Assembly: GCA_024276455.1 (NCBI GenBank)
Contig: JAJRXE010000091.1
Span: 1-34,448, forward strand
Source of the DNA: Calditrichota bacterium
GTDB taxonomy: Bacteria > Calditrichota > Calditrichia > RBG-13-44-9
Length of the DNA stretch: 34,448 nt
Direction of reading: 5' to 3'
Part shown: positions 1-18,557 of the stretch, in pieces
Layout of the letters: every line of letters begins with the position of its first letter
Numbering within the stretch: position 1 is the first letter of the stretch
Notes under the pieces: generated by a model
The model's database searches: none
What the model saw: the letters and a program-made list of their open reading frames with translations, nothing else
What the model was told of the DNA's origin: nothing
Translations under genes and position numbers: made by a program

Positions 1-3000
1 AAGACCAGTAATACAGGGGTCCCTCGGAGCGGTAGCCGTTGAAATTCCAGGCCACATCGAACCGCAGCAAGAATCCCAGAAAAATAATCCGGGCGCCCAC
101 ACCGTAACCACTGAGAATGTCGTCGAACTGCAATTGTCCCTGCGCATTGCGGGTAAATCCGCGGAAGTCCGAGAAATCCCACCAGTTTCCGCGGCTGTAC
201 CAGGCGCTTCCCACATCGTAAAACAGGGCACCGCGTACATTGAACAGAGAAATGGGCGGAAAACCGATTGTCAAATATTCAATCAGGGGGAAACGAAACT
301 CCATATTCATCAGGAAGAAGCGGTCGCCCACCCGATCGTAGTAGATCGCCCCCCGCAACGGGGTCACAAATTCCGAGAAGAACACGTCGTCAATCCGATC
401 CACCCGGATTCCGATCCGGTATTTGCGGTTGATCCAGTTGTCGATACCACCCAGGAAAAATTGTTGGGCATTTTTTCCGAAGCTGGCTCCGGCAGTTGCC
501 CGAAACGCGAAGCTGTACTGGGCACCCAGCTTGAAGTAACGCCGATAGTCAAACTTGATGGTCTGAAAATCGCGGCCGTCTTTGTTGTATTTGAAACTGG
601 AACGCAGGGTAATAATGTAGCGGGAACCGTCCACCGGCGCCAGAATGCCCCATCGGTAGCCCCACAGGACATTGTCGTGCACGTAATTGAGCTCCGGAAT
701 ACCGGTGCTGACTTTCTCAGTCGGCAAAGGCAGCTCCATATATTCCAGAAACACATTGTACCAAACCAGACTGAAATCCAACCGCTTAAAGCGGTTAAAC
801 GGATAGGAGGCATACCAGAAAGACCCAAAATTGCGGTAGCGGATCAGATCGTACCCGTTGCGCAGGAAGAAGTAAACCAGATGGTAACCGCCCACGCCAA
901 AATTAATGCGATGTTTCAAAAAGTAATAGGCGATGTTGAAGTCGCTGTTGCGTAGGTCAGCCACCAGGTTGGTGTTAATAATAATTTTATGATCGCCCAG
1001 CAAATCGCTGAACGCGAAATACGTATACCCCTGAAAACCGTAAAAGGTATTGTAACCGGCCACCCCGGTTACAAAATCGGGCGAGAACTTCAATTTGTAG
1101 CGGTGTCGCTTATAGTTGCCAAATTCGTCTTTCAACTTCTGCTCGGGCAGTTCCACGTTCCGGGCTGCTTTTTCCCTGGATCGCGGACGGTACTGCCCGA
1201 AAACGTAGTGACTGAAATCCGCCGGGGCTTCCCCTTTCATCTTTTTGGTGGTCTCCGTGGCGGTGGTATCCCCGGAGCTCTCTTCCCGCTGCGGTTCCCA
1301 GAACCGCGAATATACGGGAACCTCCGGACCACGGAGGTCCTGAACGTAACGGGTCGGACGCAACTCCACCGGTTCCACTTCCAGCGGATTGTTCATGAGG
1401 AAAATGTCGAATCCTCCTTTGTAGAAAGTGGAAAACACCATCTTATGAGCGCCACGGTCCCACCCAATCTGAAAAATTCCGGAAATAATATTGGTGACGG
1501 GGTAGTAATCTCCGGTTTCCAGATTCATCAGGTAAAGATTGAAGATGCCGTTTTCGTCGGAGGTGAAGGCAATTTTTTTGCCATCCGGAGAGAAAATGGG
1601 GGTGGCTTCTTCCCAGGGGGTATTGGTTCGGCGCTGCAACTGACCGGTTTGCAAATCCAGAATGTAAATATCGCGGTACTGGTAATCGAAATCGCTCATT
1701 TTAAAATCGGGGGGAATCTGAGAGGCGTCCAGATAGTCCTGGCGATCGGAAACAAAAGCCAGATAACGCCCGTCCGGCGACCAGGCGGGCTGATCGTCGG
1801 TGAAAATGTCGTTGGTCAGCTGCTCAATTTTTCCACTGTCGAGGTGGTAAAGGTAAATATCGCTCTGTCCGTCTTTGTTCCCCACAAAGGCAATTTTACT
1901 TCCGTCCGGCGACCAGGCGGTCGTAAAGGCGCCGTCCAGATTCTTCATGAGATGTTTTTCGATTTTCCCACTGCGAATGTCCACGATGTAAAGGGCATCC
2001 CAGGGACCGCTTTTAGCCGCCAGCACCAGCTTCCTCCCGTCGGGCGAGAAACTCATTCCGGGACGCAGAAAGTGCAGCTCTTCGAAACTCTCGGTCCGCT
2101 GTCCCCGGATTAACACCTTCAACTCCTTCCCATCGATGGCGGAAACCAGGTGAACCTCCTGATAACCGCTCTTGTCGGTGATGTAGGCAATCTTATCTCC
2201 CATGGGAGAAATGGCCGGGCTCACGTTCAGATAATTGCGCCATTTTTCGTGATTGGTAATCCGCTTGGCAATCTCGCGGGGCAACTTGCGGTCGGCGATT
2301 TCCGGGAGGTAAATTCGTTTCAAATAGGTGTGCCATTTCTCAGTAAAATCTTTGTAATCCAGCCCCAGGGTCGATCTCAACACCCGGTTAAAAGCTACTT
2401 TTCCGCGGGATTTGCTGAGAATCTCGCCAATTTTCTCCCGGCCGTACTTTTCGGCAATGAAGCGAAAGACCGAATTGCCTCCCTGATAAACCAGAAACCA
2501 TTCCAGGTACTGCAAAGGGGGAATGTAATTGTTCAACACCGCATCGCGCACAATCATGTCGGTCCGGATGTCCCAACCGACCGACTCGAATTCCGCCAAC
2601 CCCTCGGAAACCCACAGAGGAACCGGGGCCACTTCGCCCATAATCAGCGATTGCACCGATCCGCCGTAAAGCATGTCGTTCATCACGGCATGGACCAGTT
2701 CATGGTGAATAACGTGGCGAAACTGTTCGTACGAGCCCTCGAAAGGAACCACCACCCGGTTTTTGTACAACTCGGTGACCCCACCGATTCCCTCTTCCAG
2801 ATATTCAATCACCACATTGGTTTGCTGCCAGTCGTTGTGGGAATTGTACACAATAATCACCACCCGCTTGCTCAGCTTGTAATTAAAATCCCGACTGATC
2901 TGTTTATACGCTTTCTCGGCGGTCTCGGCAGTAAACTCGGCAATTTTTTCGCCTCCGGGATAATAGTAAATATCGAAGTGCTTGCTCTGAATGTAATACC

Positions 3001-3106
3001 ACTTGAAATTTTTATATTGAATTTTGTTCTTTCCGAACGACTGGGCCTGCACCGGGAGGAAGAAGAGGAAAACAAAGATGGGAAAGAGCAAAATTTTGAA
3101 TTTCAT
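1..3106 (-). CDS. Partial (C-terminus beyond window edge) exported protein: peptidase MA-like gluzincin domain + TolB/PD40 beta-propeller + Omp85/BamA-like C-terminal beta-barrel
   Basis: My translation of the minus strand from ATG at 3104-3106 (RBS aggagg upstream) is open to the window edge, so it is absent from the ORF track. Signal peptide MKFKILLFPIFVFLFFLPVQA; HHELVHAV...LWVSEGLAEFE (HExxH + downstream Glu); repeated SPDGxKIAF motifs (PD40); C-terminal aromatic-rich barrel strands with FFLGG..., YYDRVGDRFFLMNMEFRFPL, NVRGALFYDVGSAW typical of the Omp85 C-terminus. Confidence 0.85.
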   Translation of the reverse strand, partial: MKFKILLFPIFVFLFFLPVQAQSFGKNKIQYKNFKWYYIQSKHFDIYYYPGGEKIAEFTAETAEKAYKQISRDFNYKLSKRVVIIVYNSHNDWQQTNVVIEYLEEGIGGVTELYKNRVVVPFEGSYEQFRHVIHHELVHAVMNDMLYGGSVQSLIMGEVAPVPLWVSEGLAEFESVGWDIRTDMIVRDAVLNNYIPPLQYLEWFLVYQGGNSVFRFIAEKYGREKIGEILSKSRGKVAFNRVLRSTLGLDYKDFTEKWHTYLKRIYLPEIADRKLPREIAKRITNHEKWRNYLNVSPAISPMGDKIAYITDKSGYQEVHLVSAIDGKELKVLIRGQRTESFEELHFLRPGMSFSPDGRKLVLAAKSGPWDALYIVDIRSGKIEKHLMKNLDGAFTTAWSPDGSKIAFVGNKDGQSDIYLYHLDSGKIEQLTNDIFTDDQPAWSPDGRYLAFVSDRQDYLDASQIPPDFKMSDFDYQYRDIYILDLQTGQLQRRTNTPWEEATPIFSPDGKKIAFTSDENGIFNLYLMNLETGDYYPVTNIISGIFQIGWDRGAHKMVFSTFYKGGFDIFLMNNPLEVEPVELRPTRYVQDLRGPEVPVYSRFWEPQREESSGDTTATETTKKMKGEAPADFSHYVFGQYRPRSREKAARNVELPEQKLKDEFGNYKRHRYKLKFSPDFVTGVAGYNTFYGFQGYTYFAFSDLLGDHKIIINTNLVADLRNSDFNIAYYFLKHRINFGVGGYHLVYFFLRNGYDLIRYRNFGSFWYASYPFNRFKRLDFSLVWYNVFLEYMELPLPTEKVSTGIPELNYVHDNVLWGYRWGILAPVDGSRYIITLRSSFKYNKDGRDFQTIKFDYRRYFKLGAQYSFAFRATAGASFGKNAQQFFLGGIDNWINRKYRIGIRVDRIDDVFFSEFVTPLRGAIYYDRVGDRFFLMNMEFRFPLIEYLTIGFPPISLFNVRGALFYDVGSAWYSRGNWWDFSDFRGFTRNAQGQLQFDDILSGYGVGARIIFLGFLLRFDVAWNFNGYRSEGPLYYWS

Positions 3107-3293
3107 CGAACCTCCTAAAAACATTAAAACACCTTGTTTAAGTGTTTAAATCTAAATATTTTATTCCTCGACTACAATATTTTATGTTTTATTTTTTCAA
3201 ATAGATTACATATTTTTTCTTTCAAGTATGAAACCCTCAACAAGGATGCAGGGTTCCTGATTTTATCAGACAATTTTTACGGAGGATTCTTTC

Positions 3294-5715: not shown

Positions 5716-6621
5716 TTACAGATTAAACGCCACCGAAAAACGGTGCCCGTTGCCCAAATCATTGCTAAAGGGACTCAAACTGTAATCCAGACGGATGCCG
5801 GAACGAAAGAATCCCAAACCGAGGGTCCAGTTGCGGGAATCCATTCCGTTCAACCAACCGCCTCGCAGCGCCAGATGCCGAAACAGTAGCAATTCCATTC
5901 CCAGATGGGTTTGCAGGGTTTCTTCCAGCGGTTTCAGCAGATCGAGGGCCAGATTGGCGGTAAACGTCGGGGTCCGAAAGCGAACGGGCAGGAGGACTCC
6001 CAACCGCACCAGGGCGGGCAGGCGGGTCTCTTCGGCCAGAAGACGATTCATTTTGCCACCATTCTGGAACACCAGGGCCACCCGGGCATCGTTAAATGGC
6101 AAACGGTAGTTGGCACCCAGATCGATCGCAAAACCGTTGGCGTTTTCAATAAATATTTTCTCGTACAAGTACTTTACCGTTACTCCCAGCGAGAAATTCT
6201 CTTTTAGCAAACGGGAGTAACTAATTCCCAACGAGAGGTAATTGGCCGAGGTTTTTTCCAGCGGCTGCGGCGTGGGCGTGGAACGCACCGCAATGTCGCC
6301 AATGTTAAAGCTGTACACATGAAATCCCCACACGCCCGCACCCTGTTTTAAGGCCAGCGCGGCAAATTCTCCCCGAATTCCCTGTACCCACTCGGTGTGA
6401 TTAAAAATTACTTCCGAGGAAGACGTTTGGTTTAATCCGGCGGGATTCCAATACGTTGCCGCCGCCCCACTCGCCAGAGCGGTGTACGCTTCGCCCATTC
6501 CGGTTGAACGGGCATCGATGGGAATTTTCAAAAAAGAGAGCCCTGTGGAACCGGCATCGCCGGCCAGCAAGGCCTGGTTCAAAAGACCCAACAACCAAAA
6601 CAATGCAACTAACTTTCTCAT
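5716..6621 (-). CDS. PorV/PorQ-family outer membrane barrel protein (UPF0164-like)
   Basis: Signal peptide; N-terminal SFLKIPIDARSTGMGEAYTALASGAAATYWNPAGL motif characteristic of the family; beta-barrel periodicity. Confidence 0.82.
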   Translation of the reverse strand: MRKLVALFWLLGLLNQALLAGDAGSTGLSFLKIPIDARSTGMGEAYTALASGAAATYWNPAGLNQTSSSEVIFNHTEWVQGIRGEFAALALKQGAGVWGFHVYSFNIGDIAVRSTPTPQPLEKTSANYLSLGISYSRLLKENFSLGVTVKYLYEKIFIENANGFAIDLGANYRLPFNDARVALVFQNGGKMNRLLAEETRLPALVRLGVLLPVRFRTPTFTANLALDLLKPLEETLQTHLGMELLLFRHLALRGGWLNGMDSRNWTLGLGFFRSGIRLDYSLSPFSNDLGNGHRFSVAFNL

Positions 6622-6670
6622 ATATCCCTCAACATTTTCTACTGTGACCCGTCATTTTTCTTGCTAATCT

Positions 6671-7606
6671 TTAAAATAAAAACGTCCAGGTAAAAATGTG
6701 GCTGGCACCTTCGTCGATAATGGAACTGGTAAAACCGTAATCCAGCAGCGCATGAATCCCGAAGCCGGTTTTAATTTCCACCCCACCGCCAACGGTGAAA
6801 TGATCTTTATCGTACCCCACGCGCAGCGCCGCCATGGGCACCCGGGCTTCCAGACCAATGTGGTGAGCCTTCTCCCCTTTGTTGCTCCACTCAAAATCGT
6901 ACGCCAGCCGCAACCAGCGCCAGGGCGAAACGGCGTACAGTCCCAGGCGATTGGAAAGCGGGAAACGGTTGACGATGGTCATTCCCCGTTCGAAAATTTT
7001 GTCGGAATTGGATTCCAGTTTCCCGTTAATATCTTTGATCTGGTATCCCAGCGCCAACCAGGAAAACGCCTTGAAAAAAATACCCACATCGCCGCCCAAT
7101 CCCTTCCCGGTGTAGTCGAAACTGCCGTCCGGTCCGCTTAATTTTTCCAGCAAGTATTTGGCAGAAAGCCCAATGGAAAGGCGGTTTTTCAGAAATTCCA
7201 GTCCAAAGGAAAAATAGAAAGCGTGTAAACCGTGTGAGATTTCACCGGTACGCACTCCGGACGAATTGTAGGCGGAAATGTCCTTTACGCCGCTGTAAAT
7301 CCAGCCCAGAGCAATGCCGGCACTGGGCCGAATTGGGGTTGCGAACCCGATGTAATTGAATCGCCTATCCAACGACAGGAAGCTGTAGGAGAGGTTCACC
7401 TGCCGCTGGTTTAAAAAAGGCAAGCCGGCCGGATTGTAAAAAAAACCCAGACCATTGTCGGGCGAAGCAACCTGAGCGTTTCCCATGGAAATTCCCCGGG
7501 CACCCAGACCAATTCGTAAATAAGAACCGGCAAATCCGCCATTTCCTTCCGCCCAGAGGGAGGCACTATATACGATTATAATGAGCAAAACGGTTGTCCA
7601 TCTCAT
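6671..7606 (-). CDS. PorV/PorQ-family outer membrane barrel protein (UPF0164-like), second copy
   Basis: Signal peptide; SYLRIGLGARGISMGNAQVASPDNGLGFFYNPAGL motif; ends in barrel strand HIFTWTFLF. Confidence 0.82.
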   Translation of the reverse strand: MRWTTVLLIIIVYSASLWAEGNGGFAGSYLRIGLGARGISMGNAQVASPDNGLGFFYNPAGLPFLNQRQVNLSYSFLSLDRRFNYIGFATPIRPSAGIALGWIYSGVKDISAYNSSGVRTGEISHGLHAFYFSFGLEFLKNRLSIGLSAKYLLEKLSGPDGSFDYTGKGLGGDVGIFFKAFSWLALGYQIKDINGKLESNSDKIFERGMTIVNRFPLSNRLGLYAVSPWRWLRLAYDFEWSNKGEKAHHIGLEARVPMAALRVGYDKDHFTVGGGVEIKTGFGIHALLDYGFTSSIIDEGASHIFTWTFLF

Positions 7607-7619
7607 AAATTGTTTTCCT

Positions 7620-9122
7620 TTAATTAATGACTACAATTTTACCCCAGGTTACTTTATCCTGAATGTGGGCGCGAAAAAAGTACACCCCATTGTCCACCAG
7701 GCGTCCGTTACTATCTCTCCCGTCCCAGGCAAGGGAGCGGTCTGAACCGGGGGAAACGGGACCGGCCTCGGTTTTCGTCAGGGTAACGACTTTTTCCAGC
7801 GCAAAGTTAAAGATTTCGATTTCCACGGTGGTGGGAGCCGAAATATCGTACTGGAAACGGATGTAATTTCCCCGCGCCGGAGAGAACGGATTCGGATAGG
7901 CGTACACCGCCGGATCGGTTCGTTCGGTGGTGGAAACAAAACTGCGAAAGATGGTCCAGGTAAAGCCGTTGTCCGCCGTCATGGCCAGTCCGTCGCTGCT
8001 CCCCACCCAGAGCCGATGTTGAACGCCCTGCAGCGGCGAGGTGGCGACGGAATAGAAATAATTGGTCAACAACTGTTCGCCGGTTTGACTGTCCACGATG
8101 GCGGGAAACTGGTACCAGCTTTTACCGCCGTCCACCGATTTAAAGACGCCTTTTTCGGTGGCCACGTAGGTAACGGAATCGTAAAAAGCAATATTGCGAG
8201 GGAAAGCGCCGTCGCTGAGTTCCTCTTTCAGGCAGATTTCCCAGGTTTGTCCGCCATCCGGAGTTTTACTGATGGCAAAATATTCGTTGCCTCCGGTGGG
8301 CAGGGTTGCCGCCCACACGCTGCCGTCCCAGGGATTATAGGCCAGGGCAATACACCAATTCCCGGAAATCCCTCCCGGTTCCGGCTCGCCATTCTCCACC
8401 CGAAATCGGGTCCAGGTTTGCCCACCGTCGATGGATTTGCTAATTCCATCTGCGGTGCCCACCCAGATGTTCCCGTTTTCCGCCATGACGGCGAAGCCCC
8501 GATGGTTGAGGTAATCCAGCGCGCTGAAAGGTTTGCCGTCCGTGGTTACCACCTCCCAGGTCTGTCCTCCGTCCAGGGAACGCCGGATTCCCCCTCCAAA
8601 GCTGGCAATCCAGATCTGATTGTCCAGAAAGGCAATGTCGAAGGTTACGTTTTGCACTGCCGTGGTGGTGGGACGCTTTCCGTTCAGGGTGTCGTCGCGG
8701 GCATCCCGGGGCTGGGGAATGAAAACCCATTCACTGCTCCCGGGAGGCAGGTACCGTAACCCACCGCCAACCGCCAGGCTTTGTCCCTCTTCCACGGTGG
8801 TGTCGTAGGCGGTGGCAATCCAGATGGTGCCGTCCGCCGCGACGGCCAGCGCAGATATTCCGCCTTTGCCGCCGTATTCCGTGGGAGTAAAATTCTGCCA
8901 GCTGCTTCCAAGGTCCCGGGTAACGCTTAAACCGAAGCCGGTTGCCGCGTAAAGTACCCCGTCCTGCCAGACCAGATCAGTCACTCCATTACCCACCAAT
9001 CCGTTGCTATCCGGTTCCTCCTGGAACAGTTTAAAATTGGTCATTATTTGGGAAACGGCGGGACTGTGCACCCACAGCAGCACTCCCAGCGTCAAATAAA
9101 TCAGATTGCGAGTCGCTTTCAT
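7620..9122 (-). CDS. Secreted BNR/YCF48-type repeat protein with C-terminal FlgD-Ig / T9SS-type sorting domain
   Basis: Signal peptide ...HSPAVS; at least six D(G/L/N)GxxW motifs (DLGSSW, DGGQTW x3, DGGKSW, DNGFTW); C-terminal YPNPFSPARGNYIRFQYDISAPTTVEIEIFNFALEKV...WDGRDSNGRLVDNGVYFFRAHI...GKIVVIN. Confidence 0.88.
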   Translation of the reverse strand: MKATRNLIYLTLGVLLWVHSPAVSQIMTNFKLFQEEPDSNGLVGNGVTDLVWQDGVLYAATGFGLSVTRDLGSSWQNFTPTEYGGKGGISALAVAADGTIWIATAYDTTVEEGQSLAVGGGLRYLPPGSSEWVFIPQPRDARDDTLNGKRPTTTAVQNVTFDIAFLDNQIWIASFGGGIRRSLDGGQTWEVVTTDGKPFSALDYLNHRGFAVMAENGNIWVGTADGISKSIDGGQTWTRFRVENGEPEPGGISGNWCIALAYNPWDGSVWAATLPTGGNEYFAISKTPDGGQTWEICLKEELSDGAFPRNIAFYDSVTYVATEKGVFKSVDGGKSWYQFPAIVDSQTGEQLLTNYFYSVATSPLQGVQHRLWVGSSDGLAMTADNGFTWTIFRSFVSTTERTDPAVYAYPNPFSPARGNYIRFQYDISAPTTVEIEIFNFALEKVVTLTKTEAGPVSPGSDRSLAWDGRDSNGRLVDNGVYFFRAHIQDKVTWGKIVVIN

Positions 9123-9144
9123 ATTTTCCTCAAAAAGTTTTCAA

Positions 9145-10317
9145 TTACTGAATTAAGTGTAAAACCCTGACTGGTCCGGCCGTTCGATGCCCCACCCGAT
9201 CGACCGCCCAGAAGGCAAAACGGTAATCCCCTGGAGGGGTTCCGGCCGCCAGAAAAATGGTCAGGGTGTAAATACCATCGCCGGCGAGTTCGTCGCCGGC
9301 CGCCTGGGGATCGTTCACTTCATAGGGCAATCCGTTATCGAACATGAGAAAGGGATTTCCCTGCGAAGGTTGACCGTCTGGCAGATAGGAATTGAAAAAC
9401 ACCGAATCCACATCAGCCAGCCCCTGCGCATCGGTTACCTGAACGGTAATAACGATTTTCTGACTCCCGGAGGCGGGAATTTTTATGGTATCCGGTGCAA
9501 CGGCATTCCAGATTTCCGGCGGGGTGTTTTGCACCGCTATGGTTTGTTCGCGGGGCGGCGAATAATCTTCCACCCGGTCGAACGCCGAAAAGGTTAACTG
9601 ATAAGGTCCATTTTTTCCGGCACCGTAAGTGGAATCGATTACCTCGGAGAGCACTCCCTGAGGGTTGGGTGGTCCCCACACCGTGTCGCGAAACGCTATG
9701 GAGGCATCTCCTTCGCGCTGCCCAACGATTAACACGCCCTGCACATCCGCCACCCCGTCACTATCCTGGACGGCAAACTGAATGGTCGTCGGGGGCATGC
9801 CAGGAAGAATGCTGTCCGGGAATACCACCTCCAGCAATTGGGGGGGATGGTTCAGGAGGTACTCGGTCTGGAGGGTATCCACCCGCACCGATTCACCTTC
9901 GGTCGAAAAGGCTTCGACAATCACCCGGTACATTCCCGGAGAAAGCCGGTCTTTCAAATCCATCGCCGGGACAATGCGCCGGGAGTACACCTGGTCGAAG
10001 GCGATCACGTCGCCGGAGCGGGGATCGATCTGTCCTCCGTCGTCCCATAACCGCCACCCGACCACAGTCTCCTGCTGATTATTTTGCAGGGATAGTCGCA
10101 CGGAATCGATTCCTTCGTTTCCTCTGGGGTGAGTTACCCGGGCCGTCAGAAGGAGGGGCTGGCTGGAAAATCCATTCATCAGCGCCGGGACTTCAACGCG
10201 CTGAATGGCAAAAGGAATTTCCGCTTCCACCGGCCCTTTTTCTTCCGAACAGGAAAAAAGGATCGGAACGATTCCCATCAGAAATAATCCCACGATTTTT
10301 AAAGCAACCTGCGACAT
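9145..10317 (-). CDS. Lipoprotein with repeated Ig-like/choice-of-anchor-X-like modules
   Basis: Lipobox PILFSC; two modules of the form L(W/M)(D)DG...GD..A.D..Y...PG.YR....A. Confidence 0.75.
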   Translation of the reverse strand: MSQVALKIVGLFLMGIVPILFSCSEEKGPVEAEIPFAIQRVEVPALMNGFSSQPLLLTARVTHPRGNEGIDSVRLSLQNNQQETVVGWRLWDDGGQIDPRSGDVIAFDQVYSRRIVPAMDLKDRLSPGMYRVIVEAFSTEGESVRVDTLQTEYLLNHPPQLLEVVFPDSILPGMPPTTIQFAVQDSDGVADVQGVLIVGQREGDASIAFRDTVWGPPNPQGVLSEVIDSTYGAGKNGPYQLTFSAFDRVEDYSPPREQTIAVQNTPPEIWNAVAPDTIKIPASGSQKIVITVQVTDAQGLADVDSVFFNSYLPDGQPSQGNPFLMFDNGLPYEVNDPQAAGDELAGDGIYTLTIFLAAGTPPGDYRFAFWAVDRVGHRTAGPVRVLHLIQ

Positions 10318-10358
10318 TTTCGCTCCTTTTTTAGGGAGTTAAAGATTGTGTATTCAGG

Positions 10359-10378
10359 GAAGGTCCTTAAGGACCTTC
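10359..10378. repeat. 20-bp perfect palindrome GAAGGTCCTTAAGGACCTTC
   Basis: Read directly; located between prmA and the downstream lipoprotein gene. Confidence 0.95.
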
Positions 10379-10383
10379 GGGCA

Positions 10384-10403
10384 AAAGGCCGTTAACGGCC
10401 TTT
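10384..10403. repeat. 20-bp perfect palindrome AAAGGCCGTTAACGGCCTTT containing the prmA stop codon
   Basis: Read directly; TAA of prmA lies in its centre. Confidence 0.95.
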
Positions 10404-11228
10404 GCGCCACACCTGGGCAATCCATTCATTCTTTTGCAGCTGTTCCACCAATTCCAGACGTCCGGCCAGCGCTCGGTGCATTATTTCCCCTTCGGTCTCC
10501 AGCAAACCGGATAAAATCAGGCGCCCCCCGGGATTCAGTTTTGTCTCCAGGGCAAACAACATGTTTAAGAGAATCTCCCGGCTAATGTTGGCCAGAACCA
10601 AATCAAATCCTTTCTCCGGTACGCTATCTTCATTACCCACCCGAAAATCAATGGAATCCACCCGGTTTAATTGCCGGTTATGGTTGGCATTGGCAATGGC
10701 TTCCGGATCAATGTCAAAGGCAATCACCGGACCGGATCCCAACTTCCGGGCCAGAATGGCCAGAATCCCCGAACCGGTTCCGGCGTCCAGCACCGCATCC
10801 CCCTTCTTTAAATGCTTCACCAAAGCTAAAATCATCAGCTGAGTGGTTTCGTGAGTTCCGGTGCCGAAAGCCATTTGCGGATCAATAACGATGACCAGGG
10901 CCTCTTTCTCCCCCCGGGGCAAATCCCAGGGCGGCGCCACCCAGATATTTTCCGTTACCTTAACGGGTTTAAAATACTCCCGCCAGCGCTCCTGCCAGTT
11001 TTCTTCCGGCAACACGGCTACCGTAAGCTGCGTCTCCTTCAACCGTGGATTTATCTTCCGCAAAGCGGACAGTAACGCACCCAGCGAGAAATCCTCCGGG
11101 AAATAAACCGTCCACTGTGTGTCGCTGTTTTCTTCAATTCCCAGACATCCTTCCGAATACAGGACGGTGGCCAGAATATCCGGGTCGAAGCCGCTCAGCT
11201 CAAGTACAATTTTCCGGAACGTTTTCAT
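10392..11228 (-). CDS. prmA: Ribosomal protein L11 methyltransferase
   Basis: DPQMAFGTGTHETTQLM, DAGTGSGILAI, LVLANI motifs. Start at MKTFRK (11228) sits 1 nt after the upstream stop; the ORF track start is 11240. Confidence 0.93.
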   Translation of the reverse strand: MKTFRKIVLELSGFDPDILATVLYSEGCLGIEENSDTQWTVYFPEDFSLGALLSALRKINPRLKETQLTVAVLPEENWQERWREYFKPVKVTENIWVAPPWDLPRGEKEALVIVIDPQMAFGTGTHETTQLMILALVKHLKKGDAVLDAGTGSGILAILARKLGSGPVIAFDIDPEAIANANHNRQLNRVDSIDFRVGNEDSVPEKGFDLVLANISREILLNMLFALETKLNPGGRLILSGLLETEGEIMHRALAGRLELVEQLQKNEWIAQVWRKGR

Positions 11229-11229
11229 T

Positions 11230-12258
11230 CTACCGTTCAACCACGTAAATTAATTCCATAAGAACTTTTCCCACCGCCTTCAAGCTCCGGGGCGAGCATT
11301 TATCCGGGGTATCCTGAAGCGTGTGCCAGTAACGATTCGTCTGATCCGGATAGGCCAGATCAATAATATCCACCGTTTTAATTCCCCCTTCATTCAAAAT
11401 CACATGGTCGTCGCTAATGTAGCCATTGATTTCGGGAATAAACTGGTACACACCCAGCGCCTGGGCCAGATCCCAGATTTTTTGCACCACTTCCGGCGCG
11501 TACTGCTGAGAGTACCCTTCGATGGGGAGCTGCAAATAGGCGTCGCCCACCATATCCAGCAAAATCCCGTACATGGGAAAAAAACGGGTGTTGTTTTTAA
11601 CAAAATAGCGGGATCCAAGGAAATAATTCTGAAGGTCCCCCTGTTTACCGTAATCCTCTCCGTCGAAAAAGACAATATCGATCCCCACCGGTGGAGGATT
11701 TTGCGCGAACTGACGGGCCATTTCCAGCAGCATCGCTACCCCACTGGCACCGTCGTTCGCTCCCAGAATCGGTTTGTGGGCGTTTTCCGGAGAGTCCATG
11801 TCCGCCACCGGACGGGTGTCCCAGTGGGCACAGAGCAAAATTCGCCGGGTCAGTTCGGGGCGAAAGCGGGCGATCACATTAGTCATGGTCAGGGTAATCC
11901 CTCGGTCGGCATCGTAATGCATGAAGGGCTGGGTCTCCACGTGGGGGGTGTACTTGCGGAGCTGGGAAACCAGATACTGCAAACAGGCCCGATGCCCTTC
12001 CGAACCGGGATTTCGGGGGCCAAAATTTGTCTGCGCCACCAGAAAAGCAAACGCGCTGTCGGCGTTAAATTGCGGTTGGGCGGTCCCGGCCGCCGGAAAA
12101 GCGAGCCCCAACAACAATCCCAGTCCGCCCCAGAGCCAGATTCTCCTTCCCCCTCTTCCAAGAAAATGGACTTTCTCTTTCCAACACAAAAATAATTGTT
12201 TCAAATCTGTTACCCTCATTTTTAGTGGTAATTTTAACACCACATCGCCCCCAAACAC
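11230..12258 (-). CDS. M28-family metallopeptidase-fold enzyme resembling bacterial glutaminyl-peptide cyclotransferase
   Basis: LLCAHWDTRPVADMD, GANDGASGVAMLLEMARQ, IDIVFFDGEDYG, FLGSRYF, ISDDHVILNEGGIKTVDIIDLAYPDQTNRYWHTLQDTPDKCS; N-terminal hydrophobic segment and GTA|QPQ. Start may be the internal M (MRVTDLK). Confidence 0.82.
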   Translation of the reverse strand: MFGGDVVLKLPLKMRVTDLKQLFLCWKEKVHFLGRGGRRIWLWGGLGLLLGLAFPAAGTAQPQFNADSAFAFLVAQTNFGPRNPGSEGHRACLQYLVSQLRKYTPHVETQPFMHYDADRGITLTMTNVIARFRPELTRRILLCAHWDTRPVADMDSPENAHKPILGANDGASGVAMLLEMARQFAQNPPPVGIDIVFFDGEDYGKQGDLQNYFLGSRYFVKNNTRFFPMYGILLDMVGDAYLQLPIEGYSQQYAPEVVQKIWDLAQALGVYQFIPEINGYISDDHVILNEGGIKTVDIIDLAYPDQTNRYWHTLQDTPDKCSPRSLKAVGKVLMELIYVVER

Positions 12259-12266
12259 AACGGAAA

Positions 12267-15200
12267 TTACCGGATGGCAATATTCACATTAATTCCGAAT
12301 TCAAAATAAGAAGTGGTGCCGGTCAGTTTCGTTTCGGTCACCGCTTTCTCAATGAACATGGCTCCGTTCACCTTCTGACTAAACCGGTAGTTCACCGAGG
12401 GTTTAATTTTCCAGGACTTATTCTTGGCTTCTTCTTCAAAAGAATCCGACCCGGGACGTTTGGCCAGAATCAGGTCGCTGGACACATTAAACGCCAGCGT
12501 AAAGGTCATTTCGTTGCGCAGCTTTTTGCGCTTTAGAAATGGAATCGGTAATTTTAACCCTCCTCTTTTGGTGTAGGTAAAATTCATATCGAATCCCGAA
12601 CGGGTGCTTTTCTTGGCGGCTCCGGTGGCACTGTAATTGAAATTAATGCTTTTGGTGTAGCGAATCGTTCCGTTGACCCCCCATTTTGTATTGAGGTTAA
12701 TCCCCAGGAACGGCTGGTAATTCATGGTGTAACTCCAGGAATCGCGGGATTTAACATTGTCATCGTACCGGTTAAACTCATTAAACTTGCCGCTGCGGGA
12801 ATGATCGATGGTAATGGTCCGGGCAAATTTCCGAAACATGGGGAATTTTTCCAGCCCGCTCAGCCGAATCCGCCAATCCGGAATGAACATGCTCCAGCTG
12901 AATTTTTCCGGATCGTCCCCCAGAAAGAAATAGGAGCTAGTTACCGATTCCGTTTTTTGCTGATTATTCTGTGCCATATCTTTGCGAAAATTGTAAGAAA
13001 AAGAGGTGGTCAGGTTTTTCATGAAATCAAAATCCATACTGGCGGCAATATTCTTGGAATTTTTAATGGCCGGTAAACGAGGAATTTTATTAAACGTGGT
13101 GTCCACCCCTACTCCCGGATCGGTTGTAAAACCAAACATGTAATTCAGGGTCGGCATTCGGTCGATATTAAAATGCTGGTAATTGTCCGTAACCTGGTAA
13201 TCGAAATTAATGGTGCGCCAGGAGTCGAAAAAGTGCCAGACCAGCATCAACGGATTGGGAATTTTAATGGGCGGTACCCGGCTTTTTTTCTTCCCTCCGG
13301 TGCTGTCCTGGCCGGATTCGGTTTTACCGCCCCCGGACGCTGGTTGCCCACCTTTGATCTCCTTTTGGGGAACTCCCGGTATTCCGTGGCCCTGGCTCTG
13401 TCCGCTTTTTCCGGTCTGGGTCCTTCCCGGTCGACCCCGGTTTCGATTGGACACGCTCTTTCCTCGCTTTAACACCTTCTGCCTCAAGGGGTTGTAAATT
13501 TTGTTGACCAGCTCTTTCGGTCGAATATTCAGGCTAAGTTTCTTGTCAACCCGCAGGGAACTGGTCTTCTCGTTAGTTTTTACGTTGCGGAAATTGTAAG
13601 TAAAGTTGGAGTTGTAGGTAAATTTGGGAGACAGCCAGGAGGAAATTTTGGGGCCGTAATTTACCCCGAATCTCTGACTCATAAGCTTATCGACCCCGAA
13701 ATCAAAATTAGAGAAAATAGCATCAATCAGTTCTGGCGCCCGGTAGCCTTTTAACTGGGCATCGGACTGGTAATTTCGGGAGAAATTGATTCCCAGGCTG
13801 GGAAACATGGTGTAACTCATGCTCAATTTACGGGACGAGGTGGTGGTAATCCGGGTAGTGGGCTTTGCCTCCAGCCGGGCCTGCCGTTTGGACTCGTTGT
13901 CGTTAATAGAAATACCCGCCTGAATGGAATTGGGGGTGTAATAAAACTTCTGACTGGCCAACGCCCGGACAATCGGACCGTTCCCCAACCAACCAAAGGG
14001 ACGGAAAAAATTGTTTCGCCCAAAAGGCAGATTCAATTGCAACGAACCACTCAGCGCATTGACATCGTTTAACAAATTGCGTTCGTCGCTGGAATGACGC
14101 TGGCTCCAGTCCACATCCAGGCGCAGTAAGTCGATGGTGTATTTCAAGTACCAGGGTGCTTTGGGCGAGCTTCGGCGCTGAAAAGTGAACCCCAGCGATT
14201 TGCTCTGTGAAATCCGGGAATTCTTTTCCAATTCCGGATCCAGGGTGTTCAAACCGAAAAGCCGCTTGATTTTCTCTCCGAAACTTCCCCCGCTGTACTT
14301 GGTCAACTGATCGGTGTTGAAATAATATTTGGGGATTTGTTTATTGTACTGCAAGCCGCCGGAAACAGGAATTTGCAATCCCCAGCTTTCGGGGAAAAAC
14401 TTGTTTAATTTCAGGCTGAAACGGTAACTTTGCCGCTCATTGTTCATTCCCGAACCGTACTGATCTTCAATGCGGCGGAAATTCGCATCGGTGACTTCCC
14501 ACTGGGCGCGAAAGGACCCAACGTCCGCCAGAGTAAGATCGGCCCGTAAGCGCATGGCCGATCCCTTGTCCCGCTCCACATCGGTCACCCGAAGCTCGTC
14601 AATCCAGATTTCCATCCCCTCGATAGGAAAATCACCCACATTGCGCGCTCCCATAATCATAAAATTGATGTTCCGAAGGTTGGGTTTTCCCACCACCTTA
14701 AAATATTTCTCCGGGTGCTCCGGATCCTGGCGGTAATACACCGGTTGCCCGTTCAAAGAATCTACCAGAAACTCGTCCCGCTTGGTTTTCGCCAGTTCAT
14801 CCAATAACACATCGATATTGTTGCGTTCGTGCCAGTGGGCAAACACCGGTCCCCCGATTTCGTAATAAATCTCCTCGGTGGGCCCAAAACGAATGAAAAA
14901 TTGCAGGGGCGATTTAGCGTCCGGCAAATTACCGTCCGGCAACTGCCAATCTCCGTGCACGAACATTTTTAAGCGGGCGTAATTAATCAGATTCATTTTT
15001 TCCGGCAACTGTTTGTTCGCTTCTGCTATCGCCCCCGGTTCCAGATGGTTTAACCGGAGAACCAGAGACTGCTCTTTGCTTTTCGCCCGGGTAATCCGGT
15101 CCACAATTCCTGTAACGTTGGGCGGCGAATGGTACGGTTCGGGTCCGCCGGGAATGGCGACACTATTCTCTTCATCGTTGTAAACGTCCAGGGTGAACAA

Positions 15201-18200
15201 ACTGTCGGATTTCACAAAGGGCGAGTTCTCGTCCTGGGCCACTCCGGTTTCTTCCCACTCGTTTCCCACAAAATCAAAGGTGGCTATTTGAATAAGGTGG
15301 TACTTCCCATCGGGAGGCAAATTATTCACCCACAAACGAACGAAACGGATGTCTTGAAATGTTGTGTCCGGATTTCCCACCACCAGATTCGGATCGTACG
15401 CCCGGATGGGAATGCGGTACTGGCGCCAGCCTTTCTCGGTGGATCCGGTAATGTATGGATTTGACGGATCGCTGAGATCGAACTGATAGGAGAAGTAAGA
15501 ATTGGTCAGATTCAGCCCGCCGTCGCCGTCCAGGTCTTCGGTGTCCGGATATTTGGCTCCCATTCGTTCCCCATTTCCCTCGGTGCCGTTGATGTAGAGA
15601 AAGTTCGGGACCGTGGAGAGCGGATCTTTCCAGACATCCAACGGATCGGCATTCGGTTGTCCGTAGGGAATCCCATCCAGCCCGATGTCCTCCCCTTCAT
15701 CCAGTAATCCGTTTAAGTTGCGGTCTTCGGTGTTCAGATTTCGCAGCGAGGCCCGGCCCTGAATCGCAAAGGTGTTCTTGCGGATGTAAAAATCCTCGCT
15801 AATACGGCCAATATCGATATTCACCTGCCCAATGTCGCCCTTGATCCACAGCTCGATGTACTTGGTTTTCTTCTGATCGGGAAAACTCACCGTACTACGC
15901 ATAATTCCGCCCCAGGCCCGATCCTGCGGAATGCTGTCGTTCTTCCAGGCCAACACCAGCACGTTGGTCCCGTAACCGGTCTGGGCATTCACGTCCTTGT
16001 TCGGCCAGATATCTTTAATAGGCACCTGGTCGAAGGGATTGTACCAGAACATCCAAACGCGATTATCGTCCATCGCGTACATGAGCGAATCATTAGAGAT
16101 CGGAATGTCGAAATTGACTCCCAGCGAAGGAATCACAAATTTGGCCGGTACCGACGCCCGCGACCAGGTTAGATAGGGAATTCCCAGAGTGGTGGAACGC
16201 TTACTACCTTCGAAGTCGTCTATGTAGGCCACGCCGCCCTTCTCCCCCAACTTGTCTTCGTTGAACGTATTGGGATTGGGACTTACCTCGGCGTATTCCG
16301 CTTCGACGTGCAGCTTCGATTCGGCGGCGGTTTCCACCACGGGAAGCTTGTCCAGCGCCTTACTCAAAAAATTGGGGCGGAAATCCAGGGCGGTATTCAC
16401 ATCCCAGATGAAATTTCGCACCGGTTCCTGTCCCAGCCGCACCCGCTGATCCAGGGTGGAACGATTCAGATAGAGGGCCGTCATTCCAATGAATCCCCGC
16501 TCGCCCAGGGAATATTCCAGACGCCCACCCAACAGGGTCTTCTTGTCCAGCTGGAAGAGAGACCCCCGTTCGTATTCAATTTCCACATTGGCGTTGGGCC
16601 GGCGGGCTTCCTCGTCCAGAATCTGCAAGGTGCCACTGAAGTAATCGATGATGTAGTCCTTATCGCGAACCAGCTCGCGTCCGTTCAGACGCACCACCTC
16701 GGAGCCCTCCAGCACGTTGAAACCGAGATTGTAGGTCGAGGAACTGGTACTGGTGGTAATCTCGATGTCGAACTTGTGTTCCCGCTGCTCCAGGGTGTAG
16801 TCTTTGGCATTGTAAATTTTTACATACAGCGAGGAATCGATGGCAAAAGGACTTCCCCGGGGAGGTGCAAAAGGCGTCAACGACGGGAAGATCAAATAGC
16901 CGTTGGCGCGGTCAAAAATATTTCCGTTGTTCACGTCTATCTGCTTGTCACCGCCTTCAATGGGATTGCCCTGCTGATCGAGACGGTCTAACCCCATCAA
17001 ATAATTAAAGGACAACTGGGGCGGAACCGGCTGCACATCCACGTTTTCACCGGTCTTGGTGTACAGAATATTTACATCGAAACCTTCTTCCGGAATGCTG
17101 GAGGAACCCAGATTGTACACATTGCGCATCACCAATTTCCAGGTGGGGTATTCCGGTTTCAAAGCCTGCGGTTTAATCATTTTCAGAACAATGGTGGTGC
17201 TGTCGGCGATGTCTCCCACCAGCATTCCCCGGGTGGTTCCGTCTTCGGTTTGATAGGCAATAGCCAGGATATCCTGTTCCTGCAGGTTTTGGTTTAACCA
17301 GAAAAATCCCCGGTATTCGTCGTAGTTGTAATCTTCCGGGTACTTCAGCCGGACAAAGTAGGCAAATTTGACTTCCCCCTCCACATCAATCAACTTGTCG
17401 ATATTCTCTGGACCGACGGTGTCCGGATTGACCAGAGCCCAGCCGGGACGGGTCTCCTGATCGGTGGGACGGGAGCTGCGCCAGACGTCCAGCCGAACGA
17501 TCTTCTTCCCTTCGTCGAACAAGACCCACTGCATGGTCTCCGGGTCGTAGGCTTTTTCGAAATTCTCCTGGTAAATGTCGTCCACAAAGAAGAAGCGATT
17601 GCGCACATAATCGATGTCGCGCACCCGCACGGAATGTTTAGCGGCCTGACCGGTCTGGGTAATCTTCTGCTTCTCGCCCCGCTGCAAGCTGGCAATCCCG
17701 GTAAAGCTCAAATTTCCTAGTTGCATTTCGGTTTTTAAACCAAACAGCCCTTTATGCTTGGTGGTGGCCGAAACGTAATTGGTGCTGGGCAGGCTCAAGG
17801 ACACGTTTCCGGCTTCAATTTTTTGAATAATCTCATCCTCGTCGCCGGTGTAAGTCAGCCGCAGGGTGTTTTCCAGGTCAAAAGTGGCTTCGCTATTCTG
17901 ATCCACTTTTACACTCACCTTGTCGCCAACACGTCCCTCCACCTGAAACTGCTGGGTTTGCTTAAAGCGGGGACTGAAATTTCCTTTCTGTTCGAAACGG
18001 GAGACCGCCGAACCGGAACGTTTTTCGGCGCGCCCGGCCAATTCAAAAGAAATGTTACCGGTGACCCGCAACCCCACCCGGTCGCCACCAAAAATCCGTT
18101 TAAAGGCTTTACTCTTGATTTTTACCGGAATATTTAATTCGATTCCCGAAGAAGTGGAACGCTCGGTAACATTCAACCCTTTTAAAATGACTTTACGCAG

Positions 18201-18557
18201 ATTCTCCTGGTTATCGTGCTCCAACTTCTTGTGCACATAGTATTCCAGATCCATGGAAATGGGAAGCAGATAATCGCGATCGAAAAGCAATTCGCGAATT
18301 TGAATATGCAGAGTCGCGGTATCGAGTTCAACCACCCGTCGGGAATGCCGAAAAGTGGACTCGAAGAGAGTGGAATCGTGGAAGAAACGGGATAGTCCGG
18401 GGTAAGTTGGTTTAAACAGCGACACCACACCGGGAGGTTGTTCCGGTGGGCGCAAACCCAGATCACCGGCAAACGTGCCGGTTACCAGGAAGGTCAAGAC
18501 GATGAGCCAGAGGTGCGCCCGAATATTTTTCCTTTTCGGATACTGAATTCTTTTCAC
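12267..18557 (-). CDS. sprA: Cell surface protein SprA (T9SS outer membrane translocon)
   Basis: 2096 aa; signal peptide; SprA-type features: RLTYTGDEDEIIQKIEAGNVSLSLPSTNY, GLFGLKTEMQLGNL, AYIDDFEGSKRSTTLG, YPDTEDLDGDGGLN, NINFMIMGARN...IWIDELRVTDV; long barrel C-terminus. Confidence 0.93.
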   Translation of the reverse strand: MKRIQYPKRKNIRAHLWLIVLTFLVTGTFAGDLGLRPPEQPPGVVSLFKPTYPGLSRFFHDSTLFESTFRHSRRVVELDTATLHIQIRELLFDRDYLLPISMDLEYYVHKKLEHDNQENLRKVILKGLNVTERSTSSGIELNIPVKIKSKAFKRIFGGDRVGLRVTGNISFELAGRAEKRSGSAVSRFEQKGNFSPRFKQTQQFQVEGRVGDKVSVKVDQNSEATFDLENTLRLTYTGDEDEIIQKIEAGNVSLSLPSTNYVSATTKHKGLFGLKTEMQLGNLSFTGIASLQRGEKQKITQTGQAAKHSVRVRDIDYVRNRFFFVDDIYQENFEKAYDPETMQWVLFDEGKKIVRLDVWRSSRPTDQETRPGWALVNPDTVGPENIDKLIDVEGEVKFAYFVRLKYPEDYNYDEYRGFFWLNQNLQEQDILAIAYQTEDGTTRGMLVGDIADSTTIVLKMIKPQALKPEYPTWKLVMRNVYNLGSSSIPEEGFDVNILYTKTGENVDVQPVPPQLSFNYLMGLDRLDQQGNPIEGGDKQIDVNNGNIFDRANGYLIFPSLTPFAPPRGSPFAIDSSLYVKIYNAKDYTLEQREHKFDIEITTSTSSSTYNLGFNVLEGSEVVRLNGRELVRDKDYIIDYFSGTLQILDEEARRPNANVEIEYERGSLFQLDKKTLLGGRLEYSLGERGFIGMTALYLNRSTLDQRVRLGQEPVRNFIWDVNTALDFRPNFLSKALDKLPVVETAAESKLHVEAEYAEVSPNPNTFNEDKLGEKGGVAYIDDFEGSKRSTTLGIPYLTWSRASVPAKFVIPSLGVNFDIPISNDSLMYAMDDNRVWMFWYNPFDQVPIKDIWPNKDVNAQTGYGTNVLVLAWKNDSIPQDRAWGGIMRSTVSFPDQKKTKYIELWIKGDIGQVNIDIGRISEDFYIRKNTFAIQGRASLRNLNTEDRNLNGLLDEGEDIGLDGIPYGQPNADPLDVWKDPLSTVPNFLYINGTEGNGERMGAKYPDTEDLDGDGGLNLTNSYFSYQFDLSDPSNPYITGSTEKGWRQYRIPIRAYDPNLVVGNPDTTFQDIRFVRLWVNNLPPDGKYHLIQIATFDFVGNEWEETGVAQDENSPFVKSDSLFTLDVYNDEENSVAIPGGPEPYHSPPNVTGIVDRITRAKSKEQSLVLRLNHLEPGAIAEANKQLPEKMNLINYARLKMFVHGDWQLPDGNLPDAKSPLQFFIRFGPTEEIYYEIGGPVFAHWHERNNIDVLLDELAKTKRDEFLVDSLNGQPVYYRQDPEHPEKYFKVVGKPNLRNINFMIMGARNVGDFPIEGMEIWIDELRVTDVERDKGSAMRLRADLTLADVGSFRAQWEVTDANFRRIEDQYGSGMNNERQSYRFSLKLNKFFPESWGLQIPVSGGLQYNKQIPKYYFNTDQLTKYSGGSFGEKIKRLFGLNTLDPELEKNSRISQSKSLGFTFQRRSSPKAPWYLKYTIDLLRLDVDWSQRHSSDERNLLNDVNALSGSLQLNLPFGRNNFFRPFGWLGNGPIVRALASQKFYYTPNSIQAGISINDNESKRQARLEAKPTTRITTTSSRKLSMSYTMFPSLGINFSRNYQSDAQLKGYRAPELIDAIFSNFDFGVDKLMSQRFGVNYGPKISSWLSPKFTYNSNFTYNFRNVKTNEKTSSLRVDKKLSLNIRPKELVNKIYNPLRQKVLKRGKSVSNRNRGRPGRTQTGKSGQSQGHGIPGVPQKEIKGGQPASGGGKTESGQDSTGGKKKSRVPPIKIPNPLMLVWHFFDSWRTINFDYQVTDNYQHFNIDRMPTLNYMFGFTTDPGVGVDTTFNKIPRLPAIKNSKNIAASMDFDFMKNLTTSFSYNFRKDMAQNNQQKTESVTSSYFFLGDDPEKFSWSMFIPDWRIRLSGLEKFPMFRKFARTITIDHSRSGKFNEFNRYDDNVKSRDSWSYTMNYQPFLGINLNTKWGVNGTIRYTKSINFNYSATGAAKKSTRSGFDMNFTYTKRGGLKLPIPFLKRKKLRNEMTFTLAFNVSSDLILAKRPGSDSFEEEAKNKSWKIKPSVNYRFSQKVNGAMFIEKAVTETKLTGTTSYFEFGINVNIAIR

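What the first reader, a model, noticed from the sequence alone, without database searches (positions are those of the whole stretch)
5716..18557. Compact T9SS-associated locus: sprA, glutaminyl-cyclase-like M28, prmA, lipoprotein, CTD cargo and two PorV-like barrels in one run
Seven same-strand genes with small gaps or overlaps. SprA is the T9SS translocon pore and PorV is its known shuttle partner in Bacteroidetes; here one run holds the pore, two PorV-family barrels, a protein with a sorting-type C-terminal domain and a candidate modifying enzyme. I see no PorK/L/M/N genes in the window. The order differs from the scattered Bacteroidetes arrangement as I know it. It could be a self-contained pore-shuttle-cargo module in a non-Bacteroidetes lineage.
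Basis: partly seen in the sequence, partly recalled or inferred. Interest (0 to 1): 0.75.

Follow-up and report, generated by a model that had tools for sequence, protein, structure and literature searches.

The report
Motorless type IX secretion gene cluster
The run is a conserved gene cluster for the outer-membrane half of the type IX protein-export machine (pore, carriers, a surface-capture protein and a finishing enzyme) in a bacterial phylum whose genomes lack every gene of the proton-driven motor thought to power that machine, so either the pore can work without the motor or something else drives it.

Summary
Observation confirmed: seven minus-strand genes at 5716-18557, gaps 8-74 nt, one 11-nt overlap. 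SprA scores 819 bits (cut-off 200). The M28 protein is a glutaminyl cyclase. One barrel is over the PorV/PorQ-family cut-off; the other's predicted fold matches PorV best. The "CTD cargo" is better read as PorZ-like (propeller plus CTD; best fold match is PorZ). The host phylum is Calditrichota. The cluster is conserved across sampled Calditrichota loci and in Neomarinimicrobiota; a SprA-cyclase stub persists in KSB1. Reading changed: it is not self-contained. PorU (catalytic His/Cys intact) and about 90 CTD genes lie elsewhere. The real surprise is missing machinery: GldL, GldM, GldN 0/40 Calditrichota genomes, GldK 0/29. GldK scored over cut-off in 7/7 motor-positive controls; GldL and GldM picked the same 19 of 80 genomes in a control phylum. 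On a SprA tree, motor-bearing lineages form one clade (support 99), so the motor looks like a later addition to an older motorless module. Energy source unknown. Verdict: a real, ancient, motorless variant of T9SS. T9SS-like genes in other FCB phyla, and restriction of GldLM to Bacteroidetes, were each already reported; I found no paper joining the two or describing this locus.

The parts
12267..18557 (-). sprA (sov): T9SS outer-membrane translocon, 2096 aa
   Evidence: TIGR04189 819 bits, cut-off 200; best PDB match 6h3i/8gl6 F. johnsoniae SprA, E 2e-76; 40/40 phylum genomes have it
11230..12258 (-). M28-family type II glutaminyl cyclase (N-terminal pyroglutamate former)
   Evidence: PF04389 123 bits; best PDB matches Bacteroidetes exopeptidase/glutamine cyclotransferases 3gux, 4fuu, 6qro, 6qql, E to 3e-66; D169, E201, W311, H312 invariant in 13 orthologues
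10392..11240 (-). prmA, ribosomal protein L11 methyltransferase; probably a housekeeping passenger
   Evidence: PF06325 214 bits, TIGR00406 over cut-off
9145..10317 (-). lipoprotein (lipobox Cys23) with repeated Ig-like/choice-of-anchor-X-like units; conserved part of the cluster, role unknown
   Evidence: sequence; family alignment with invariant C23 and D-rich repeats
7620..9122 (-). PorZ-like protein: signal peptide, one beta-propeller, C-terminal CTD-type beta-sandwich
   Evidence: AlphaFold2 pLDDT 84.8; Foldseek best PDB match PorZ 5m11, E 8e-15; profile matches PorZ 5m11 and the PorU CTD 6za2; only 18.2 bits to TIGR04183
6671..7606 (-). PorV/PorQ-family barrel 2
   Evidence: NF033709 77 bits, below cut-off 90; AlphaFold2 pLDDT 87.9; Foldseek best PDB matches PorV in the T9SS translocon 8gl6_F and 6h3i_F
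5716..6621 (-). PorV/PorQ-family barrel 1
   Evidence: NF033709 177 bits, cut-off 90; PF19572 PorV 36.6 bits, cut-off 27

Best explanation
The run is the outer-membrane module of a type IX-like secretion system that works without the GldKLMN/PorKLMN energy chain. Sec-exported proteins with a C-terminal domain enter the SprA barrel, their CTD is bound by a PorV-family barrel docked at the SprA side opening, and the barrel-cargo pair leaves sideways. A PorZ-like propeller protein, the second PorV/PorQ-like barrel and PorU (encoded elsewhere) then receive, cleave and fix the cargo at the surface. The neighbouring glutaminyl cyclase caps the N-terminal Gln that many exported proteins expose after signal-peptide cleavage. 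Shown by sequence or fold: the identity of the parts, the conserved order, PorU with its catalytic residues, about 90 CTD genes, absence of detectable GldK, L, M and N, and the enrichment of Gln at position +1. Inferred: that the parts export these cargos, and the whole sequence of steps. I commit to a carrier-release step that needs no dedicated motor (capture by PorU/PorZ pulls the reaction forward) at about 45%, against an unrelated energiser at about 35%.
For: Parts. Conserved order in Calditrichota and in 12 of 13 Neomarinimicrobiota-like loci with enough downstream sequence; cyclase next to SprA in 16/16 Neomarinimicrobiota-like and 16/20 KSB1-type loci, but directly after SprA in none of 20 SprA loci of the control phylum. 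PorU NF033707 over cut-off in 36/40 genomes; the own copy scores 813 bits; His864 and Cys899 invariant in 12. About 90 CTD genes. Motor genes: GldM 0/40 true, GldN 0/40, GldL 0/40, GldK 0/29 over cut-off and no match at all in the own genome. Controls: GldL and GldM over cut-off in the identical 19 of 80 genomes; GldK 526-599 bits in 7/7 motor-positive genomes and over cut-off in 0/10 motor-negative SprA-positive ones. SprA tree: motor bearers one clade, support 99, one change. Gln at +1: 15/38 and 12/44 against backgrounds of 0.074 and 0.057 (p 3e-8, 4e-6); 13/24 in a motor-positive control and 0/18 in a SprA-negative control. Loading of cargo onto SprA-PorV needs no energy in F. johnsoniae (PMC10994853).
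Against: In F. johnsoniae, loss of GldL traps cargo on the translocon and release is inferred to be the energy-requiring step (PMC10994853), so a motorless system needs a different solution that I have not identified. Absence rests on HMMs; a motor diverged beyond recognition is not excluded, and the GldN search had only one positive control. SprE/PorW, PorD, PorG and PorT were not tested. No expression or secretion data exist here. Barrel 2 is below the curated PorV-family cut-off, and the PorZ resemblance covers one propeller where PorZ has two.
Confidence: 0.78

Rival explanations
1. A canonical T9SS whose GldK, L, M and N proteins have diverged so far that profile searches miss them.
For: Calditrichota SprA itself scores only about 820 bits against 2000-2865 for motor-bearing lineages, so partner proteins could also be diverged; GldM periplasmic domains do occur in a lipoprotein of one member, G033.
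Against: All four components are missing together. GldK scores 526-599 bits in every motor-positive genome, yet Calditrichota show only generic FGE-domain hits of 118 bits or less. In the control phylum, lineages whose SprA scores 1500-2600 bits also lack GldK, L and M, so loss of detection by distance does not explain the pattern there.
Confidence: 0.13
2. The translocon is energised by another motor, for example an ExbBD/TolQR-type 5:2 complex acting through TonB or a TPR lipoprotein.
For: Release of carrier plus cargo is energy-dependent in F. johnsoniae (PMC10994853); other 5:2 motors exist in many bacteria (PMC9389320).
Against: No motor gene lies in the conserved cluster or was recognised next to porU.
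Confidence: 0.35
3. SprA and the barrels in this lineage no longer secrete CTD proteins but serve another outer-membrane function.
For: No experiment shows secretion in Calditrichota; a shorter SprA-related protein of about 1190 aa of unknown function is widespread.
Against: PorU with an intact catalytic pair in the phylum, about 90 CTD genes in the genome, and a PorZ-like partner in the same run.
Confidence: 0.05
4. An accidental run of housekeeping and envelope genes with no shared function.
For: prmA and the flanking cmk, pseudouridine synthase, scpB, scpA and tRNA-synthetase genes are housekeeping.
Against: Same order in Calditrichota and Neomarinimicrobiota while SprA identity falls to about 30%.
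Confidence: 0.02

Closest known systems
Type IX secretion system of Bacteroidota (F. johnsoniae, P. gingivalis)
   Same: SprA/Sov pore, PorV-family carriers, PorU sortase, TIGR04183 CTD cargo, PorZ-like surface propeller
   Different: No detectable GldK/PorK, GldL/PorL, GldM/PorM or GldN/PorN; pore, carriers and PorZ-like gene in one run; glutaminyl cyclase next to sprA
PorU-PorV-PorQ-PorZ attachment complex (P. gingivalis; composition from established knowledge)
   Same: Two PorV/PorQ-family barrels plus a propeller-CTD protein; PorU present in the genome
   Different: Single propeller; below the curated PorZ, PorV and PorQ equivalog cut-offs; porU unlinked; anionic-LPS attachment untested
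Bacteroidetes type II glutaminyl cyclases (PDB 3gux, 4fuu, 6qro, 6qql) and the Q-rule (PMC5837995)
   Same: M28 fold, conserved zinc-ligand positions, Gln enriched at +1 of exported proteins
   Different: Gene sits directly after sprA; +1 Gln 27-39% by my crude predictor, against 54% in the motor-positive control genome

Membership tests
Type IX secretion system | SprA/Sov translocon | tested here: met
   TIGR04189 819 bits; 40/40 genomes
Type IX secretion system | PorV-family carrier | tested here: met
   NF033709 177 bits over cut-off for barrel 1; barrel 2 fold match to PorV
Type IX secretion system | PorU sortase with C25 catalytic His and Cys | tested here: met
   NF033707 813 bits; invariant H864 and C899
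Type IX secretion system | CTD-bearing cargo | tested here: met
   about 90 TIGR04183 matches over cut-off in the own genome
Type IX secretion system | PorK/L/M/N (GldKLMN) motor and ring | tested here: not met
   GldM, GldN, GldL 0/40 and GldK 0/29 over cut-off, with positive controls
Type IX secretion system | SprE/PorW, PorD, PorG, PorT, Plug | not tested
Type IX secretion system | CTD-dependent export and cleavage | not testable with these tools
   needs proteomics
Glutaminyl cyclase type II (M28) | M28 fold with zinc ligands and the Trp-His motif | tested here: met
Glutaminyl cyclase type II (M28) | cyclisation activity rather than aminopeptidase activity | not testable with these tools
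   needs enzyme assay
PorZ | beta-propeller plus C-terminal CTD domain | tested here: met
PorZ | two propellers and NF052228 over its cut-off of 260 bits | tested here: not met
   one propeller; 17 bits
PorV/PorQ family | NF033709 cut-off of 90 bits | tested here: inconclusive
   barrel 1 met (177 bits), barrel 2 not (77 bits), but its fold matches PorV best

The most novel reading that the evidence does not exclude
T9SS began as a motor-independent outer-membrane export module (SprA, PorV-type carriers, PorZ-like protein, PorU) that still operates without any dedicated motor in Calditrichota, Neomarinimicrobiota, KSB1 and several lineages of the control phylum; the rotary GldKLMN chain was added once, later, in one clade.
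Probability: 0.45. Interest if true: 0.85.

Novelty: new variant of a known kind. Interest (0 to 1): 0.64.

Why it matters
T9SS is described as powered by a proton-driven motor, and current models place the energy use at release of the carrier with its cargo. A whole phylum with pore, carriers, sortase and about 90 cargo genes but no detectable motor gives a natural test of what the motor is for and what came first. It may also explain why a survey whose T9SS model included the Gld motor proteins reported T9SS only in Bacteroidetes (PMC4793230). The recurrent sprA-glutaminyl cyclase neighbourhood is a genetic lead on the noted but unexplained coincidence of T9SS and the Q-rule (PMC5837995).

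Tried and rejected
(1) The CTD protein as ordinary cargo: its CTD is among the weakest in the genome (18.2 bits), and its gene is conserved in place across phyla with PorZ as the best fold match, so it is read as a machine part. (2) The GldM hit in G033: a lipoprotein with only GldM domains 3 and 4 and no gldL or gldN found in that genome, so not a motor. (3) GldK hits in Calditrichota: FGE-domain paralogues, as in Bacillus and Caulobacter controls. (4) A T9SS island around porU: only an unannotated protein of about 600 aa recurs, in 7 of 12 loci. (5) The SprA-cyclase link as a general T9SS trait: not seen in 20 control-phylum loci. (7) First SprA tree attempt timed out; repeated with a faster alignment. 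(8) Promoter and terminator scan uninformative. (9) A first, cruder Q-rule count that let membrane proteins in was replaced; both show the same trend. (10) McBride and Zhu 2013 is not held, so whether it already noted motor-free lineages is unchecked.

Full report
What is there. The window is contig C8 of a 4.06-Mb, 537-contig assembly (G000). All seven genes of the finding exist at the stated coordinates on the minus strand, with gaps of 8, -11, 74, 22, 13 and 49 nt from SprA to the last barrel and 122 nt to the upstream cmk gene. Upstream lie a tRNA synthetase, scpA, scpB, a pseudouridine synthase and cmk; downstream is a fumarase. Named records most similar to this SprA are almost all Calditrichota; a few carry other labels, such as Deltaproteobacteria and Caldisericaceae, that I take to be misassigned. 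One same-class genome, G001, is a single contig of 4,978,541 bases, which fits Caldithrix abyssi from memory; this identification is inferred.

Identity of the parts. SprA: TIGR04189 819 bits, nearest solved structure F. johnsoniae SprA. M28 protein: closest to Bacteroidetes glutamine cyclotransferases, with the metal-ligand positions and the Trp-His motif invariant. The propeller-CTD protein gives a confident model (pLDDT 84.8) whose best match among 350,542 PDB chains is PorZ (E 8e-15); propellers resemble one another, so the E-value alone is not proof, but the shared CTD and the gene context point the same way, and its sequence profile also reaches PorZ and the PorU CTD. The barrels: barrel 1 is over the PorV/PorQ-family cut-off, barrel 2 below it, but barrel 2's model matches PorV from the T9SS translocon better than any other solved structure, ahead of the FadL family that shares the fold. 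PrmA looks like a passenger. The lipoprotein has no clear family.

Conservation. In 20 sampled Calditrichota loci the order SprA - (cyclase) - PrmA - lipoprotein - PorZ-like - barrel 2 - barrel 1 is kept as far as the contigs reach; one contig ends inside SprA, and the cyclase is missing beside SprA in 7. In Neomarinimicrobiota-type genomes the PorZ-like gene and both barrels follow in 12 of 13 with enough sequence, and the cyclase follows SprA in 16 of 16; in KSB1-type genomes the cyclase follows in 16 of 20 but the rest is usually elsewhere. In 20 SprA loci of the control phylum the run does not follow SprA; single PorV-like, propeller or M28-like genes turn up near a few of them.

A secretion system without its motor. 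SprA occurs in all 40 genomes of the phylum and PorU over cut-off in 36, with its catalytic histidine and cysteine invariant in 12 inspected copies. The own genome holds about 90 CTDs over cut-off. GldM has no true match in 40, GldN none in Calditrichota, GldL none in 40, GldK none over cut-off in 29 and none at all in the own genome; GldM is also absent from 31 further genomes, mostly KSB1 and Neomarinimicrobiota, though that call had no positive control of its own. Positive controls: in 80 genomes of the phylum of G132, GldM and GldL are over cut-off in exactly the same 19; GldK is over cut-off in 7 of 7 of these tested and in 0 of 10 SprA-positive genomes without GldLM. In that phylum 62 genomes have SprA, 18 with and 44 without GldLM.

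History. A SprA tree of 67 proteins puts all 18 motor-bearing lineages in one clade (support 99) with a single change of state. Rooted on Calditrichota, KSB1 and Neomarinimicrobiota, one gain explains the pattern against at least 3 losses within the control phylum, or 5 if the motor was present at the root. The tree is a FastTree result; one very long branch (L278) was left out of the count. The root is an assumption.

The cyclase. By a simple signal-peptide predictor, Gln at +1 is 39% and 27% in two Calditrichota genomes against 7% and 6% background, 54% in a motor-positive control and 0% in a SprA-negative control. This resembles the Bacteroidetes Q-rule, whose authors noted a coincidence with T9SS and argued that the link may not be mechanistic (PMC5837995). 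The predictor is crude and the samples small.

Mechanism. Cryo-EM work on F. johnsoniae showed that cargo loads onto SprA-PorV without energy and inferred that releasing the carrier with its cargo needs the motor (PMC10994853). In Calditrichota that step must be passive, pulled by capture and cleavage at the surface, or driven by something else. The evidence does not decide; I put about 45% on the first and 35% on the second, the rest on an undetected motor or other roles.

What was known. [quoted passage not shown] a 2022 paper says GldLM is exclusive to Bacteroidetes (PMC9389320). No held paper contains both 'Calditrich...' and 'type IX secretion'. McBride and Zhu 2013 is not held. The parts of the conclusion were therefore partly published; the joint statement, the tree and this locus I did not find, in a library that lacks most subscription journals.

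Noticed in passing
L258:3178-6726 (+); own truncated copy L259:2213-3766 (G000:C35): A widespread outer-membrane-type protein of about 1190 aa shares a short stretch with SprA (TIGR04189 positions about 604-670, 32 bits) and has no Pfam match; such hits recur in many genomes of both phyla searched.
   Followed up: partly
L253:2886-4679, L256:4993-6789, L249:10173-12044: An unannotated protein of about 600 aa sits directly before porU in 7 of 12 Calditrichota loci, in most of these near eno and a short conserved gene; no Pfam or NCBIfam match.
   Followed up: partly
L055:1345-2058: A lipoprotein made of GldM domains 3 and 4 only, without motor genes in the flanks held; similar lone hits occur in some motor-positive genomes.
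   Followed up: partly
G132 (whole genome handle): A genome listed as complete, with gldL, gldM and gldN but no SprA match; may be real or a masked stretch.
   Followed up: no
2-3124 (-): Large protein with a peptidase-MA domain, TolB-like propeller repeats and a C-terminal stretch weakly matching the TamL model.
   Followed up: no
L079, L083: Records titled Deltaproteobacteria and Caldisericaceae carry Calditrichota-type loci; probably mislabelled bins.
   Followed up: no
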